Assembly (NCBI RefSeq): GCF_002005145.1
Contig: NZ_CP019698.1
Coordinates: forward strand, 1,612,001-1,676,000
Reading direction: 5' to 3'
DNA from: Desulforamulus ferrireducens
GTDB lineage: Bacteria > Bacillota > Desulfotomaculia > Desulfotomaculales > Desulfotomaculaceae
DNA length: 64,000 bases
In this document: positions 6,086 to 59,701 of the stretch, in pieces
How the letters are laid out: every line of letters begins with the position of its first letter
Numbering within the stretch: position 1 is the stretch's first letter
The notes under the pieces: model-generated
Told to the model about the DNA's origin: nothing
Seen by the model: only the letters and a program-made list of their open reading frames with translations
Databases searched by the model: none
Made by a program: the position numbers and the translations under genes

Positions 6086-7444
6086 ATGTACAGTATAAAT
6101 GAGGTTCTGGAAACCATTCGGATGGTTCAGGAAGAAAAACTGGATATTCGTACCATTACCATGGGTATTAGTCTGCGGGATTGTGCTGATGCTGACCACA
6201 CCAAGTCTTGCCAAAAGATTTATGATAAAATCACCAAATATGCTGCTAACTTGGTCAAGACAGGGGAAGAAATCGAAAAGGAATACGGTATTCCCATTAT
6301 TAATAAACGCATATCAGTAACTCCCATGTCTTTAGTGGCTGAAAGCAGTGATGCCCTCAATTATACACCCTTTGCTATGGCCTTGGATAAGGCAGCGAAG
6401 GAAGTGGGGGTCAATTTTATTGGTGGTTTTTCTGCCTTGGTGCACAAGGGGTTTACCAAAGGAGATCGTATTTTGCTAGACTCCATCCCGGAAGCATTAT
6501 CCACCACAGAAAGGGTATGTTCTTCGGTTAACGTAGGTTCCACAAAGGATGGCATTAACATGGATGCCGTCTACCGGATGGGTCAAATTATTAAGGAATG
6601 TGCTGAGCGCACCGCCAGCCAGGATGGCCTGGCCTGTGCCAAATTAGTGGTGTTCTGTAATGTACCCGAGGATAATCCCTTTATGGCCGGGGCTTTTCAT
6701 GGCATTGGTGAACCGGAATGTGTAATTAACGTAGGAGTTAGTGGTCCCGGGGTAGTCAAGAATGCCGTGGAAAAGGTGAAGGGCAGTGATTTTGGCACCC
6801 TGGCCGAAACAGTAAAAAAGACCGCCTTTAAGATAACCCGCATGGGTGAGTTAGTGGGACGGGCTGCCGCTGCCAAATTAGGTGTACCCTTTGGTATTGT
6901 TGACCTATCCTTAGCACCTACCCCCGCTGTGGGAGATAGTGTGGCAGAGGTGCTGGAGGCCATGGGTCTGGAGACTTGCGGTACCCATGGTACCACTGCT
7001 GCCCTGGCCTTATTAAACGATGCTGTGAAGAAGGGCGGAGCCATGGCTTCCTCCTATGTGGGAGGTCTTTCCGGTGCCTTCATTCCCCTCAGCGAAGACG
7101 CTGGGATGATCCGTGCAGCAGAACAGGGTATTTTAACCTTGGAAAAGTTAGAGGCCATGACCTGCGTGTGCTCTGTAGGACTGGACATGATTGCCATACC
7201 AGGTGACACCACAGCCGAGACCATTGCGGCGATTATCGCCGACGAAATGGCCATTGGCATGGTTAACTTTAAAACCACCGCTGTGAGAATTATTCCCGCA
7301 CCGGGTAAAAAGGTTGGCGATAATGTTGTCTTTGGCGGACTGCTTGGCCATGCTCCTATTATTCCAGTCAAAGCAGCTAAAGCAGTGGAATTCGTCTCCC
7401 GGGGCGGACGTATTCCCGCACCGATACAGAGTTTGAAGAACTAG
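6086..7444 (+). CDS. UPF0210 / DUF711 family protein
   Basis: A 452-residue cytoplasmic protein of the UPF0210 family, recognised from its N-terminus ([30 protein letters not shown]) and from the glycine-rich stretches [38 protein letters not shown] and [13 protein letters not shown]. The family is linked by fold to pyruvate formate-lyase-like barrels but lacks an obvious glycyl-radical motif here, and its reaction is unknown to me. It is translationally close to the ACT gene and ends before a strong terminator. Confidence 0.92.
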
Positions 7445-7464
7445 ATCTTGATAGTATTAACGGG

Positions 7465-7503
7465 AATGTCGCATCACTACAGTCATGCGGCATTTCTCTT
7501 TTT
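7465..7503 (+). terminator. terminator of the GTGTCGCA hairpin family
   Basis: AATGTCGCAT (7465-7474) pairs with ATGCGGCATT (7485-7494), with one G-U pair, and TCTCTTTTTT follows. The arms are nearly those of hairpins at 24786, 33947 and 59623. The T run leads straight into a GGCCNNN heptad array. Confidence 0.85.
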
Positions 7504-7504
7504 T

Positions 7505-7564
7505 GGCTGTCAGCTTTTGGCCATTGGCCAATTGCACATCATCACCAAATTATGCAACAGCCCC
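7505..7564 (+). repeat. GGCCNNN heptad array with CATCATCACC-CAGCCCC end motif
   Basis: Four 7-bp units (GGCTGTC, AGCTTTT, GGCCATT, GGCCAAT) directly follow the terminator T run. They are followed by a segment at 7533-7564 containing CATCATCACC and ATGCAACAGCCCC, which is closely matched at 24835-24868. Intergenic, between UPF0210 and rluD. Confidence 0.7.
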
Positions 7565-8559: not shown

Positions 8560-8615
8560 GGCCGTCAGCCACCTAATCAAGCCGGTGGCAGATGGCCGGT
8601 GGGCAACAGGCTAAC
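8560..8615 (+). repeat. degenerate GGCCNNN heptad array between convergent genes
   Basis: GGCCGTC, AGCCACC, then after a 6-base slip AGCCGGT, GGCAGAT, GGCCGGT, GGGCAAC, AGGCTAA: a 7-bp period with a conserved GCC core. GCCACC and GGTGGC can also form a short hairpin. It fills most of the 93-bp gap between the 3' ends of rluD and ndh. Confidence 0.6.
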
Positions 8616-24759: not shown

Positions 24760-24785
24760 TGAGACAACATAAAAAAGCTACATGG

Positions 24786-24822
24786 GTGTCGCATAACTAG
24801 GGTAATGCGGCACTTCTTTTTT
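24786..24822 (+). terminator. pyr operon terminator of the GTGTCGCA hairpin family
   Basis: GTGTCGCAT (24786-24794) pairs with ATGCGGCAC (24805-24813), then TTCTTTTTT. It is a second copy of the hairpin at 7465, again leading into GGCCNNN units. Confidence 0.88.
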
Positions 24823-24823
24823 G

Positions 24824-24868
24824 GGCCGATGGACAATATGCATCATCACCTTATTGCGCCACAGCCCT
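24824..24868 (+). repeat. short heptad run plus CATCATCACC-CAGCCC end motif
   Basis: GGCCGAT, GGACAAT and ATGCATC are in 7-bp phase right after the terminator T run. The stretch to 24868 (CATCATCACC, TTATTGCGCCACAGCCC) matches 7533-7564 closely. Confidence 0.65.
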
Positions 24869-31709: not shown

Positions 31710-31822
31710 GGGGGCTGCTGCGCAACTGGCCCTCGGCCATCAGCCATCGGCCTTCGGACCTTAACCTTTGGCCATTGGCTTTATAGAATGGCCTTAGGCC
31801 CTAAGCCATAGGCCATAGGCCT
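31710..31822 (+). repeat. GGCCNNN heptad array, locus A left
   Basis: From 31728: GGCCCTC, GGCCATC, AGCCATC, GGCCTTC, GGACCTT, AACCTTT, GGCCATT, GGCTTTA, then after a one-base slip GGCCTTA, GGCCCTA, AGCCATA, GGCCATA, GGCCTTT. The RGCC core is kept and the three following bases vary. At 31710-31724, GGGGCTGCTGCGCAA is the reverse complement of the CAGCCCC end motif seen at 7564 and 24868. Period 7 rules out a coding reading. Confidence 0.8.
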
Positions 31823-31950
31823 TTTAAGAGCCTCCCTATTGTGTAGGTGGTGGCGTAACCGCCAGGGGGATTGGGCAAAAAACTGCCAAACTCTCCCTGA
31901 CGTACGTGCCACGCCCCCTCAGGAGAGCACTGCTAAAGGGGTACTATGTT
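31823..31950 (+). repeat. core segment shared with 59367-59534 (opposite strand)
   Basis: After the heptads the sequence runs from GGCCTTTTAAGAGCCTC through TAGGTGGTGGCG to CTAAAGGGG near 31940. The reverse complement of 59367-59534 runs GGCCTTTTTGAGAACCTC, GAGGTGTCGGCG, CTTTAGGGG in the same order. By eye the two are alignable with gaps over about 120-150 bp. No ORF of note is present. Confidence 0.5.
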
Positions 31951-31960
31951 AAATGAAACT

Positions 31961-31992
31961 AAGCACCACTACAACTTCTGGTGGTGCTTTTG
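31961..31992 (+). terminator. Rho-independent terminator downstream of the Ca2+-ATPase
   Basis: AAGCACCAC (31961-31969) and GTGGTGCTT (31981-31989) form a perfect 9-bp stem with an 11-nt loop, followed by TTTTG. It lies about 250 bp after the ATPase stop, beyond the repeats. Confidence 0.7.
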
Positions 31993-32000
31993 TCATGCCT

Positions 32001-32016
32001 GGACGACCGATGGCCA
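32001..32016 (+). repeat. heptad fragment left of the group II intron
   Basis: GACCGAT GGCCA (32005-32016) is in phase with the heptads that resume at 33905 once the intron is removed. Confidence 0.7.
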
Positions 32017-32089
32017 ATCGAGTAGGAGGGAGCGATTAACTCCCGTCCTCTCACACCACCGTACGTACCGTTCGGTATACGGCGGTTCA
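32017..32089 (-). ncRNA. group II intron ribozyme domains V and VI
   Basis: Minus-strand GAACCGCCGTATACC and GGTACGTACGGTGGTG (32088-32054) form the domain V hairpin, with bulge and tetraloop-like tip. ACGGGAGTTAATCGCTCCC then forms domain VI with a candidate branch-point A in the TTAATC region. The maturase stop codon overlaps the first base pairs of domain V. Confidence 0.8.
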
Positions 32090-33499
32090 TGTTGTGGAAC
32101 GAAGTTCGTTGTATCTTTCAACTAAACTTTTAAGCCCTTGTTCTTGCCAAAAGGCGAGACCGAGGGCTTTGTTTACTTGTGGCGTGTTTGATAATCTCCA
32201 GTATCCCTTACGTGACGCACTTATCAGCATTGCCCATTCTGGCGGTATCCCCAGCGCTACTAATTTCTTTCTTTTGGTCTTTGGTTTCTTCCATTGTTTT
32301 AAGTAGCACATTCGTAGTCGCCGTCTTAGCCATTCATCAAGGGATTGAAATACGCTTCTCGTATCAGCTAACCTGTAGTAGCCAATCCACCCGACTATAT
32401 AGGTGTTGATTGCCTTGATTCTTTTGTTCATTGACTGGCTTTTGCTTCGGTTGGTTAGCTCCCGTATTTTGTCCATGAATCGCTTTTTCGTCTTTGGGGC
32501 TATTCTGATTTTGGGTTCTTTGTCCCACGTAAATGAAAATCCTAGAAATTTCCTCTTCCACGGCCTGTCTACTGCACTCTTTTGCATATTGACTTTAAGT
32601 TTTAGTCTCTCTTCTACAAACTTTTTGACACTCGCCATGACTCTTTCCCCGGCTCTTCGGCTCTTTACGTAAATGTTGCAGTCATCTGCATATCTGACGA
32701 ATCTGTGCCCTCTCCTGCAGAGTTCTAAATCCAGTTCATTCAGCATGATGTTGGCTAAGAGTGGACTTAACGGTCCTCCTTGAGGGGTTCCTTCTCCGGT
32801 TGCTATGCAGCATCCGTTTACCATTACCCCGGCTTGGAGGTATCTCCGAATGAGCAGTAACACCCTTTTGTCTTGGATTCTTCTGGCCACCTTTGACATA
32901 AGTATGTCGTGGTTGACCTTGTCGAAGAATTTCTCCAAGTCCATGTCCACTACCCACCTGTATCCTTCCTTGATGTATTCTCTTGCCAGTTCTACTGCCG
33001 AATGTGCTCTTTTGTGGGGGCGAAAGCCGAAGCTAAATGGGACAAAGGTTGGTTCAAAGATGTCGTTCATTTTCTGTAGAAGGGCCTGTTGGATTAGGCG
33101 GTCTATTACCGTTGGTATTCCCAACAACCTTGTTCCTCCGTCTGGTTTCGGGATTTCGACTCGACGTACTGGTTTTGGTTGGTAGGTTCCTTTTAGGAGT
33201 TGTTCTCTAATTACGGGCCACTGGTCTTTGAGGAATGGACGAAGGGATTCTATCGTCATTCCATCTATTCCAGCTGCTCCTTTGTTAGTCTCCACCCGGT
33301 ATAGCGCATATAGCATATTGTCCCTTGCTACCACCCGTTCCATCAGGTTGTTACAACTTTCTTCGCGGGTCGTTTCTTTGGTTCGTGCCGGTGATAAACT
33401 CGGCCCTCCTCCAGTCCCCTGCGTATTCACCGCTTCCTCCTGAAGGTAGTTCCCTTTTGGGATTTTCTGCTGTCTTTGCTTACCTCTCGAACTCCCCAT
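32087..33499 (-). CDS. ltrA: group II intron reverse transcriptase/maturase
   Basis: Splicing and retrohoming protein of the host intron. The 470-residue product has RT blocks with NKGAAGIDGMT (~residue 71), RRVEIPKPDGGTRLLGIPTV, GFRPHKRAHSAV, the catalytic FVRYADDCNIYV (YADD), TPQGGPLSPLLANIMLNELD, and the maturase domain X (RKFLGFSFT to WRLSNTPQVNKALG). No C-terminal HNH endonuclease follows. All catalytic residues look intact, so the element may be active. The start ATG 33499 is preceded by GAGGGAAG. Confidence 0.95.
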   Translation of the reverse strand: MGSSRGKQRQQKIPKGNYLQEEAVNTQGTGGGPSLSPARTKETTREESCNNLMERVVARDNMLYALYRVETNKGAAGIDGMTIESLRPFLKDQWPVIREQLLKGTYQPKPVRRVEIPKPDGGTRLLGIPTVIDRLIQQALLQKMNDIFEPTFVPFSFGFRPHKRAHSAVELAREYIKEGYRWVVDMDLEKFFDKVNHDILMSKVARRIQDKRVLLLIRRYLQAGVMVNGCCIATGEGTPQGGPLSPLLANIMLNELDLELCRRGHRFVRYADDCNIYVKSRRAGERVMASVKKFVEERLKLKVNMQKSAVDRPWKRKFLGFSFTWDKEPKIRIAPKTKKRFMDKIRELTNRSKSQSMNKRIKAINTYIVGWIGYYRLADTRSVFQSLDEWLRRRLRMCYLKQWKKPKTKRKKLVALGIPPEWAMLISASRKGYWRLSNTPQVNKALGLAFWQEQGLKSLVERYNELRSTT

Positions 33500-33904
33500 G
33501 AACTTCCCTCACAATCATGTTCAGCCCTTCCCTGCTCAGACGTCTCTTTGCAGGTACTATGGCCTCTGCTGACTCCTGCCGGTTCAGTCATACATCTCTG
33601 CATGGGTTACCAATTTAATTGGCGTTTCCGGCAGGCCTCCCCGGGTAAGAACGTTATCTTTCCCTCCATCTACCCGCTCCATTTACTCTCGACAGCCTTT
33701 GGTAGCATGGACTTTATCTTGCTTTGCAGATTCATCCAACTGTCGCTAGCCTCACCTGGAGTTCGTGGTCCTCGGGCCAGAGGTTTGCCGCCGACTTCCT
33801 TCAGATTCTACCTCGCGATAGACACCCTTGTCTTAAGCTATAGCTACTGCTACCTTCGCCATTCGGGACTTTCACCCTATAGATAACGCCCATGCCAGGC
33901 GCAC

Positions 33905-33940
33905 AAAGCCAAAGGCCAAAGGCCAAAGGCCAATGGCCAT
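33905..33940 (+). repeat. GGCCNNN heptad array, locus A right of the intron
   Basis: Units with variable triplets AAA, AAA, AAA, AAT, ATC follow the intron 5' edge in perfect 7-bp steps, ending at GGCCATC just before the A run of the chemoreceptor terminator. Confidence 0.8.
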
Positions 33941-33941
33941 C

Positions 33942-33984
33942 AAAAAGGGAAGCGCCGCCTAATCTTATTTATGCGACACTTCCC
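33942..33984 (-). terminator. chemoreceptor terminator of the GTGTCGCA hairpin family
   Basis: On the minus strand GGGAAGTGTCGC (33984-33973) pairs with GCGGCGCTTCCC (33958-33947), with G-U pairs, followed by TTTTT and then GGCC heptads. Same layout as 7465, 24786 and 59623. Confidence 0.85.
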
Positions 33985-34013
33985 CTTATATCCTTTGGAC
34001 CTATGGCAAATAC

Positions 34014-38148: not shown

Positions 38149-38220
38149 GGCCTTTGGACCAGGGGCCGTTAACCATTGACTAATCAAGAAAAGTCATGGG
38201 CTAATGGCCAATGGTTGTTT
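38149..38220 (+). repeat. degenerate GGCCNNN heptad array after dapL
   Basis: GGCCTTT, GGACCAG, (one extra G), GGCCGTT, AACCATT, GACTAAT, CAAGAAA, AGTCATG, GGCTAAT, GGCCAAT, GGTTGTT. The 7-bp phase holds over about 70 bp although several cores are decayed. It begins directly after the stop codon. Confidence 0.65.
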
Positions 38221-50850: not shown

Positions 50851-50871
50851 GGCCAATTGCCGTCTGTCAAG
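50851..50871 (+). repeat. three-unit heptad remnant after rlmN
   Basis: GGCCAAT, TGCCGTC, TGTCAAG directly after the rlmN stop. In phase with the GGCCNNN pattern but too short to be certain. Confidence 0.35.
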
Positions 50872-59292: not shown

Positions 59293-59309
59293 TATATGAT
59301 AAACAAACT

Positions 59310-59366
59310 GGCCGTCGGCCTTCGGTTTTTTGGTCTTAGGCCATAGGCCGTAAGCCATTGGCTTAG
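59310..59366 (+). repeat. GGCCNNN heptad array, locus B left
   Basis: GGCCGTC, GGCCTTC, GG(T6) interruption, GGTCTTA, GGCCATA, GGCCGTA, AGCCATT, GGCTTAG. The T run after GGCCTTCGG might let this act as a terminator for the small gene upstream. Confidence 0.75.
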
Positions 59367-59534
59367 TTGGATTTAACCTGGTACTCGAACACATTCCCCT
59401 AAAGAGTGGATTATAAGAGTCTCTCGCCGAGGGGTCAGGGGCTGCGTGTCGCAAAGCGAATGGGGGAGTTATGCAGGGGGGTATGCCCACGCCCTCCGTT
59501 GGCTCCGCCGACACCTCAGTGAGGTTCTCAAAAA
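59367..59534 (-). repeat. core segment shared with 31823-31950
   Basis: Read on the minus strand this 168-bp segment begins GGCCTTTTTGAGAACCTC and continues GAGGTGTCGGCGGAGCC and AACTCCCCC to CTTTAGGGGAATGTGTT, in the same order as locus A on the plus strand. It has no supported gene. It is bracketed on both sides by heptads. Confidence 0.5.
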
Positions 59535-59615
59535 GGCCAAAGGCTAAAGGCCAAAAGCCTATGGCTTAAGGCCTACGGCCAATCTTTTAAAGCCGACGGC
59601 CGAGGGCTGACGGCC
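59535..59615 (+). repeat. GGCCNNN heptad array, locus B right
   Basis: GGCCAAA, GGCTAAA, GGCCAAA, AGCCTAT, GGCTTAA, GGCCTAC, GGCCAAT, a short break (CTTTTAA), then AGCCGAC, GGCCGAG, GGCTGAC, GGCC. Every unit keeps G-C in positions 2-3, while the last three bases vary. Confidence 0.8.
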
Positions 59616-59655
59616 AAAAAAGAGTGTCGCATAACCGTAGTTTTGCGACACTTCC
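59616..59655 (-). terminator. terminator of the GTGTCGCA hairpin family
   Basis: AGTGTCGCA (59623-59631) and TGCGACACT (59644-59652) form a perfect 9-bp stem. On the minus strand it is followed by CTTTTTT and then GGCC heptads. It serves the minus-strand gene ending at 59702. Confidence 0.85.
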
Positions 59656-59701
59656 TTGTTCCTGCTATCATAGTATATGGCTGAAGCGTTACTAAAGTCG
59701 C

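What the first reader, a model, noticed from the sequence alone, without database searches (positions are those of the whole stretch)
31710..31822. Dispersed family of degenerate 7-bp GGCCNNN arrays in intergenic DNA
Arrays with a strict 7-bp pitch, conserved RGCC/GGCY core and three freely varying bases occur at 7505, 8560, 24824, 31728, 32005/33905, 38149, 59310 and 59535 (and a remnant at 50851), always outside genes. The varying triplet argues against recent slippage copying and for selection on the GGCC spacing, or for long decay of an old satellite. Adjacent units are self-complementary (GGCC-NNN-GGCC), so they can fold, and each GGCC is also a common methylation target. I know of heptanucleotide repeats in cyanobacteria but not of this family.
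Basis: seen in the sequence. Interest (0 to 1): 0.75.

Follow-up and report, generated by a model that had tools for sequence, protein, structure and literature searches.

The report
Seven-base repeat hairpins between genes
Scattered runs of a loosely repeated seven-base word between genes are real; they are mostly the two arms of long hairpin-shaped repeats, many spread as part of a roughly 350-base repeated element, and similar seven-base arrays turn up patchily in other bacteria for reasons nobody has explained.

Summary
The 7-bp arrays are real and far above chance: RGCYNTH x3 gives 741 matches in the 3.24 Mb genome against 1 for the reversed pattern, almost all between genes. The description needs correcting. 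The unit is RGCY-N-T-H, not GGCC plus three free bases: only base five is free, base six is nearly always T, base seven is almost never G and is constant within blocks. GGCC itself is not maintained.

Close neighbouring arrays of opposite type always occur as converging pairs (34 against 0), able to form one long hairpin. In this species many are the arms of a roughly 350-bp composite repeat whose core (61 copies; none in 59 relatives) matches the two flanks of the genome's only DUF559 gene. Site 31710 is the left half of one copy, split from its right arm by a group II intron.

Such arrays, with other words, occur patchily across Bacillota. Their positional pattern, pairing and location equal those published for Xanthomonas GGGANTN repeats: a new family of a known but unexplained kind. 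Whole-unit slippage plus spread with the composite repeat is the best explanation. GGCC methylation or spacing selection is not supported. Host function, and why seven, remain open.

The parts
7462..7564 (-). Coreless mini copy: terminator-like hairpin end, a few heptads (L units 7505-7536), left-end motif (GGGGCTGTTGCATAATTTGGTGATGATGTGCAATTGGCC on minus strand); lies just 3' of the gene ending at 7444
   Evidence: no array at the orthologous site in congener G001
8560..8606 (.). Weak degenerate heptads, not detected by the element model
   Evidence: (2 mismatches)
24776..24867 (-). Coreless mini copy with one or two heptads between the terminator-like hairpin and the left-end motif
   Evidence: absent from G001
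31710..31727 (+). Left-end motif of the composite repeat (GGGGGCTGCTGCGCAACT)
31728..31821 (+). L array (RGCC-NTC, NTT and NTA blocks): the stretch named in the finding
31828..31924 (+). Hairpin-chain core of the composite repeat
   Evidence: E 3e-20; genome-wide model R2
32000..33901 (-). Group II intron interrupting the copy (reverse transcriptase ORF 32087-33499; D1-D4 matches 33524-33822); outer boundaries approximate, read from sequence
33905..33940 (+). R array of the same copy, beyond the intron
33947..33985 (+). Right-end terminator-like hairpin of the same copy
38149..38215 (.). Very degenerate facing pair of heptad remnants
   Evidence: absent from G001
59301..59660 (+). Composite copy with intact facing arrays: L 59310-59363, core inverted 59420-59525, R 59535-59615, right-end hairpin 59620-59660; predicted to fold as one long hairpin

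Best explanation
The arrays are degenerate heptad repeats (unit RGCYNTH) that mostly occur as facing pairs, L array - loop - R array, able to fold into one long hairpin in RNA or single-stranded DNA. They gain and lose whole 7-bp units, most likely by replication slippage (inferred). In this species many pairs flank a hairpin-chain core and form a roughly 350-bp composite repeat, with a left-end motif (GGGGCTGTTGCGCAATTA..GATGATGTGCAAC) and a right-end terminator-like hairpin. That repeat, and coreless mini versions, spread to dozens of intergenic sites. The core equals the two flanks of a DUF559 gene joined together, so it looks like a gene-less derivative of that element (inferred); what moved the composite is unknown. 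The arrays are probably tolerated, largely selfish repeat DNA that adds a strong hairpin near transcript ends, not a GGCC recognition system. They are of the same kind as the Xanthomonas GGGANTN heptamers.
For: Unit and positional code. Facing order 34 to 0. Folding of a whole window copy z -7.6 with arms paired and of a coreless pair in G001 z -5.2. Dispersed composite anatomy; 61 core copies here, none in 59 relatives. Whole-unit differences between copies with 99% identical cores. Presence/absence against syntenic G001. DUF559 gene, single in the genome, flanked by half-cores. Only period 7 is enriched among tandem arrays in the sampled genomes. Same positions 1-4 and 6 conserved, convergent pairs and intergenic location in Xanthomonas (PMC4692102).
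Against: No transposase, target-site duplication or precise ends were established. Slippage alone does not explain why base 5 is free while base 6 is fixed, nor why only period 7. Mini and solo arrays show that the composite is not the only vehicle.
Confidence: 0.6

Rival explanations
1. Functional RNA stems: the facing arrays are kept because they form double-stranded RNA that RNase III or transcript-end processing uses, as heptad arrays appear to do in the rRNA operons of the same genome.
For: Facing order 34 to 0; strong folding; heptads of another word (TCGA-NNN) pair at 26-27 of 32 positions inside 16S and 23S and around 23S; RGCYNTH arrays in rRNA spacers of G222; enrichment in convergent intergenic regions, 17 of 40 array-bearing regions against 18% of intergenic bases.
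Against: Arms of the same copy are no more complementary than arms of different copies (p=0.73); the seventh base is not coordinated between arms (8 of 21, 7.5 expected); strong turnover between congeners.
Confidence: 0.2
2. GGCC recognition: the spacing of GGCC is selected for a methyltransferase or a GGCC-binding protein.
For: GGCC is the commonest core here (128 of 222 left-arm units).
Against: 42% of left-arm units lack GGCC; R and Y vary independently; other genomes use AGCT or AGCC in the same architecture. No methyltransferase was searched for.
Confidence: 0.03
3. Old satellite in neutral decay: an ancient perfect heptamer tandem array, now eroding at random.
For: Units differ and some sites are remnants (8560, 38149, 50851).
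Against: Decay should hit all positions, but base 5 is free while base 6 is 89% T and base 7 avoids G; arrays differ by whole units between recent copies.
Confidence: 0.1
4. A dedicated, word-independent mechanism (unknown enzyme) writes or maintains heptads with a fixed positional code.
For: Same code (four conserved, N, T, variable) in Bacillota and Xanthomonas (PMC4692102); period 7 only; patchy distribution.
Against: No candidate gene: Y1 transposase shows no association. Other heptad words in these genomes (AGTTCRT, TCGA-NNN) do not follow the N-T pattern.
Confidence: 0.07

Closest known systems
GGGAATC / (GGGANTN)n heptameric repeats of Xanthomonas (PMC4692102)
   Same: 7-bp unit; positions 1-4 and 6 conserved with T at 6; dispersed; about 90% intergenic; 70-75 close convergent pairs per genome; few between divergent genes; strong turnover between related species
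   Different: Word is RGCY, which has no G-tract and cannot form a G-quadruplex; carried in part by a composite repeat; different phylum
Cyanobacterial short tandemly repeated heptanucleotides (STRR; Calothrix, Nostoc) and the Nostoc tRNA-Leu intron P6b heptads TDNGATT / NNTGAGT (PMC4476775)
   Same: Degenerate heptads building both sides of a stem; length changes by seven bases
   Different: Different words and a different arrangement of fixed and free positions; different phylum
TAACTGA direct repeats of Beggiatoaceae (PMC4679880)
   Same: Intergenic heptamer arrays with patchy cross-phylum distribution
   Different: Nearly invariant word, just upstream of start codons, not in facing pairs
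MITEs and other palindromic intergenic repeats
   Same: Short, multicopy, hairpin-forming, no gene, full and reduced forms
   Different: Arms are heptad arrays; no transposase or target-site duplication identified; core resembles the flanks of a DUF559 gene

Membership tests
Xanthomonas-type degenerate heptamer repeats | 7-bp unit with positions 1-4 and 6 conserved, 5 and 7 variable | tested here: met
   against PMC4692102
Xanthomonas-type degenerate heptamer repeats | Dispersed, predominantly intergenic | tested here: met
Xanthomonas-type degenerate heptamer repeats | Close convergent pairs | tested here: met
   34 L-then-R, 0 R-then-L
Xanthomonas-type degenerate heptamer repeats | G-rich word GGGA able to form a G-quadruplex | tested here: not met
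   Core is RGCY; so it works alike but is not a member of the GGGA family
Cyanobacterial STRR | The known cyanobacterial heptamer words | tested here: not met
   RGCYNTH differs from TDNGATT and NNTGAGT (PMC4476775); cyanobacterial genomes not searched
MITE | Many near-identical short copies without a gene | tested here: met
   61 core copies; mini copies
MITE | Terminal inverted repeats | tested here: inconclusive
   Left end GGGGCTGTTGCGCAATTA and inverted right end GGGAAGTGTCGCATTACTA are only loosely alike
MITE | Target-site duplication and a cognate transposase in the genome | not tested
   Ends not defined precisely; left-end pattern search gave no obvious partner element
DUF559-flanking palindromic element (core only) | Half-cores on both sides of a DUF559 gene | tested here: met
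   L053 5118-6000, PF04480 E 2e-29, single copy
REP/RAYT system | Y1 (REP-associated) transposase associated with the repeats | tested here: not met
   Present in nearly all genomes with and without arrays
GGCC methylation or binding arrays | GGCC kept intact in each unit | tested here: not met
   128 of 222 left-arm units are GGCC; R and Y independent

The most novel reading that the evidence does not exclude
Heptad arrays with different four-base words but the same positional code (four conserved, N, T, variable), in facing pairs and with period seven only, in Bacillota and in Xanthomonas, are produced or maintained by one unknown, word-independent mechanism, which also builds stems in rRNA.
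Probability: 0.15. Interest if true: 0.85.

Novelty: new variant of a known kind. Interest (0 to 1): 0.58.

Why it matters
Over-representation of heptamers among bacterial tandem repeats was noted in 2007 and is still unexplained (as reviewed in PMC4692102). Here is a large, well-defined family in another phylum with the same positional code as the Xanthomonas repeats but with a word that cannot form a G-quadruplex, so G-quadruplex formation cannot be the general cause. Recent copies that differ by whole units, and syntenic congeners with and without arrays, make the mechanism and the question 'why seven' testable. That rRNA stems in the same genome are also built of heptads links such repeats to RNA structure.

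Tried and rejected
GGCC-NNN-GGCC mini-hairpins: R and Y uncoupled between neighbouring units. Co-evolving arms: same-copy arm complementarity equals cross-copy, p=0.73; seventh-base coordination between arms 8 of 21 against 7.5 expected, although one orthologous pair (L026 and L111) had suggested it. RAYT/Y1 transposase as cause: no association. Rfam: nothing known at the element in the window. RNAalifold found almost no structure in the core alignment, the first hairpin aligning poorly; a hand-set chain of hairpins pairs in 80.8% of cells against 45-55% when slid and 79.1% in column shuffles, so covariation support is modest. Core model in 398 phylum genomes: only four weak hits outside this genome, of which L189 looks core-like by eye. 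The simple terminator scan did not call the right-end hairpins, so 'terminator-like' rests on the hairpin and T-run read in the sequence. Literature searches found no report of RGCYNTH arrays.

Full report
OBSERVATION. The window holds strict 7-bp arrays at 7505, 31728, 31790, 33907, 59339, 59535 and 59591. The GGCC-based pattern is about 8-fold above shuffles in the window and occurs 39 times in the genome against 0 for the reversed control. Sites 8560, 38149 and 50851 are weak. An evenly spaced sample of forty 20-kb stretches plus the window (864 kb) served for unbiased statistics.

THE UNIT. Judging each unit only by its two neighbours (271 units), the positions read R (94%), G (87%), C (86%), Y (94%), N (free), T (89%), H (not G in 270 of 271). 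Base five is independent between neighbours (0.29 same, 0.31 expected); base seven is constant in blocks (0.88 against 0.38). Smaller samples of G001, G200 and G222 show the same pattern with other favourite letters. So the unit is RGCYNTH; three in phase occur 741 times in the genome against 1 control. GGCC is only the commonest core, and R and Y vary independently.

ARCHITECTURE. L arrays (RGCYNTH) and R arrays (their reverse complement) lying within 300 bp are ordered L then R in 34 cases and R then L in none (13 to 0 outside the window's own genome). In this genome many pairs are the arms of a dispersed repeat of about 350 bp: left end, L array (usually NTC then NTA then NTT blocks), core, linker, R array, terminator-like hairpin. 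In some copies the core is inverted relative to the ends, including 59301-59660 in the window. Coreless mini copies exist (7462-7564, 24776-24867). The 31710-33989 copy is split by a group II intron on the minus strand. The 59305-59660 copy is predicted to fold as one long hairpin, z -7.6; the isolated left arm at 31725 stands out less, z -2.6.

THE CORE. A model of the core finds 61 copies here and none in 59 relatives, eight of them congeners. Beside uvrA, halves of the core flank the genome's only DUF559 gene. The plain core is therefore that unit without its gene; the direction of derivation is inferred. A related hairpin chain without heptad arms occurs in an Oscillospiraceae MAG.

DYNAMICS. 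Two copies with 99% identical cores have 7 and 12 left-arm units and arms only about 80% identical. The window is syntenic with congener G001. At the orthologous sites of 7445, 8542, 24760 and 38149 G001 has no array; at 31710 and 59290 it has short R arrays without a core. G001 has its own facing arrays with neither core nor element ends, so facing heptad arrays look like the older component and the composite the newer (inference).

DISTRIBUTION. RGCYNTH x4 occurs in 21 of 120 relatives and 15 of 398 phylum genomes, often in tens to hundreds of matches (G000 468, G222 199, G009 192, G001 158, G200 140), while most genomes have none and controls are near zero. In the loci looked at, period 7 is the enriched tandem period, and other heptad words occur too. 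Except for G000, whose sample was evenly spaced, many of those loci had been chosen because they hold arrays, so the period comparison is cleanest in G000 (20 arrays at period 7; 0 to 4 at periods 5-13 otherwise).

RNA LINK. In this genome the 16S and 23S genes carry internal insertions, and 23S is flanked, by arms made of heptads of another word (TCGA-NNN) that pair at 26-27 of 32 positions. A large helix 6 in 16S rRNA is known in Desulfotomaculum (PMC3339622). In G222, RGCYNTH arrays lie in rRNA spacers. This supports stem formation by heptads in general but does not show a function for the intergenic ones, whose arms show no copy-specific co-variation.

COMPARISON. PMC4692102 describes (GGGANTN)n in Xanthomonas: positions 1-4 and 6 conserved, 70-75 convergent pairs per genome, about 90% intergenic, divergent regions under-represented, strong length and sequence variation between related species. 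The present arrays match these features except the G-tract word. They are the same kind, but a different family. The earlier proposal for heptamers, polymerase slippage tied to the footprint of the active site, is cited there.

MECHANISM AND CONFIDENCE. Shown: unit, order, intergenic location, composite anatomy, unit gain or loss, presence/absence between congeners, folding potential. Inferred: slippage as the cause of unit change, DUF559 origin of the core, mobility of the composite, hairpin formation in transcripts. Unknown: why seven, why base five is free, what moves the composite, and any host function.

Noticed in passing
L017 7790-12845, L020 14754-18393, L048 11183-16100: A second heptad family, TCGA-NNN in blocks of five (32 bp), builds complementary arms inside 16S (helix 6 region), inside 23S and around 23S in rRNA operons of this genome.
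   Followed up: partly
L126 7486-17988 (another Bacillota genome, G222): RGCYNTH arrays sit in the spacers of rRNA operons, just after 16S and 23S ends.
   Followed up: partly
L053 5118-6000: Only DUF559 gene of the genome, next to uvrA, flanked by halves of the repeat core; a possible gene-bearing form of the core.
   Followed up: partly
window 32000-33901: Group II intron (minus strand) inserted in the composite repeat copy next to its right array.
   Followed up: partly
window 59301-59660; L021 5229-5639; L024 6360-6735: Copies whose core is inverted relative to the ends; L002, L004 and L008 share a near-identical core, so an inverted form seems to have spread as a unit.
   Followed up: partly
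window 31905-31990; L064; L035: A shared insert (GGAGAGCACTGC..AAGCACCACTACAACTTCTGGTGGTGCTT) at the 3' side of the core in at least three copies.
   Followed up: no
L131-L142 (G200, G155, G392, G339): Other heptad words in tandem (AGTTCRT, GAATTRT, AGCTACM, AGTTTTT), again with period seven.
   Followed up: no
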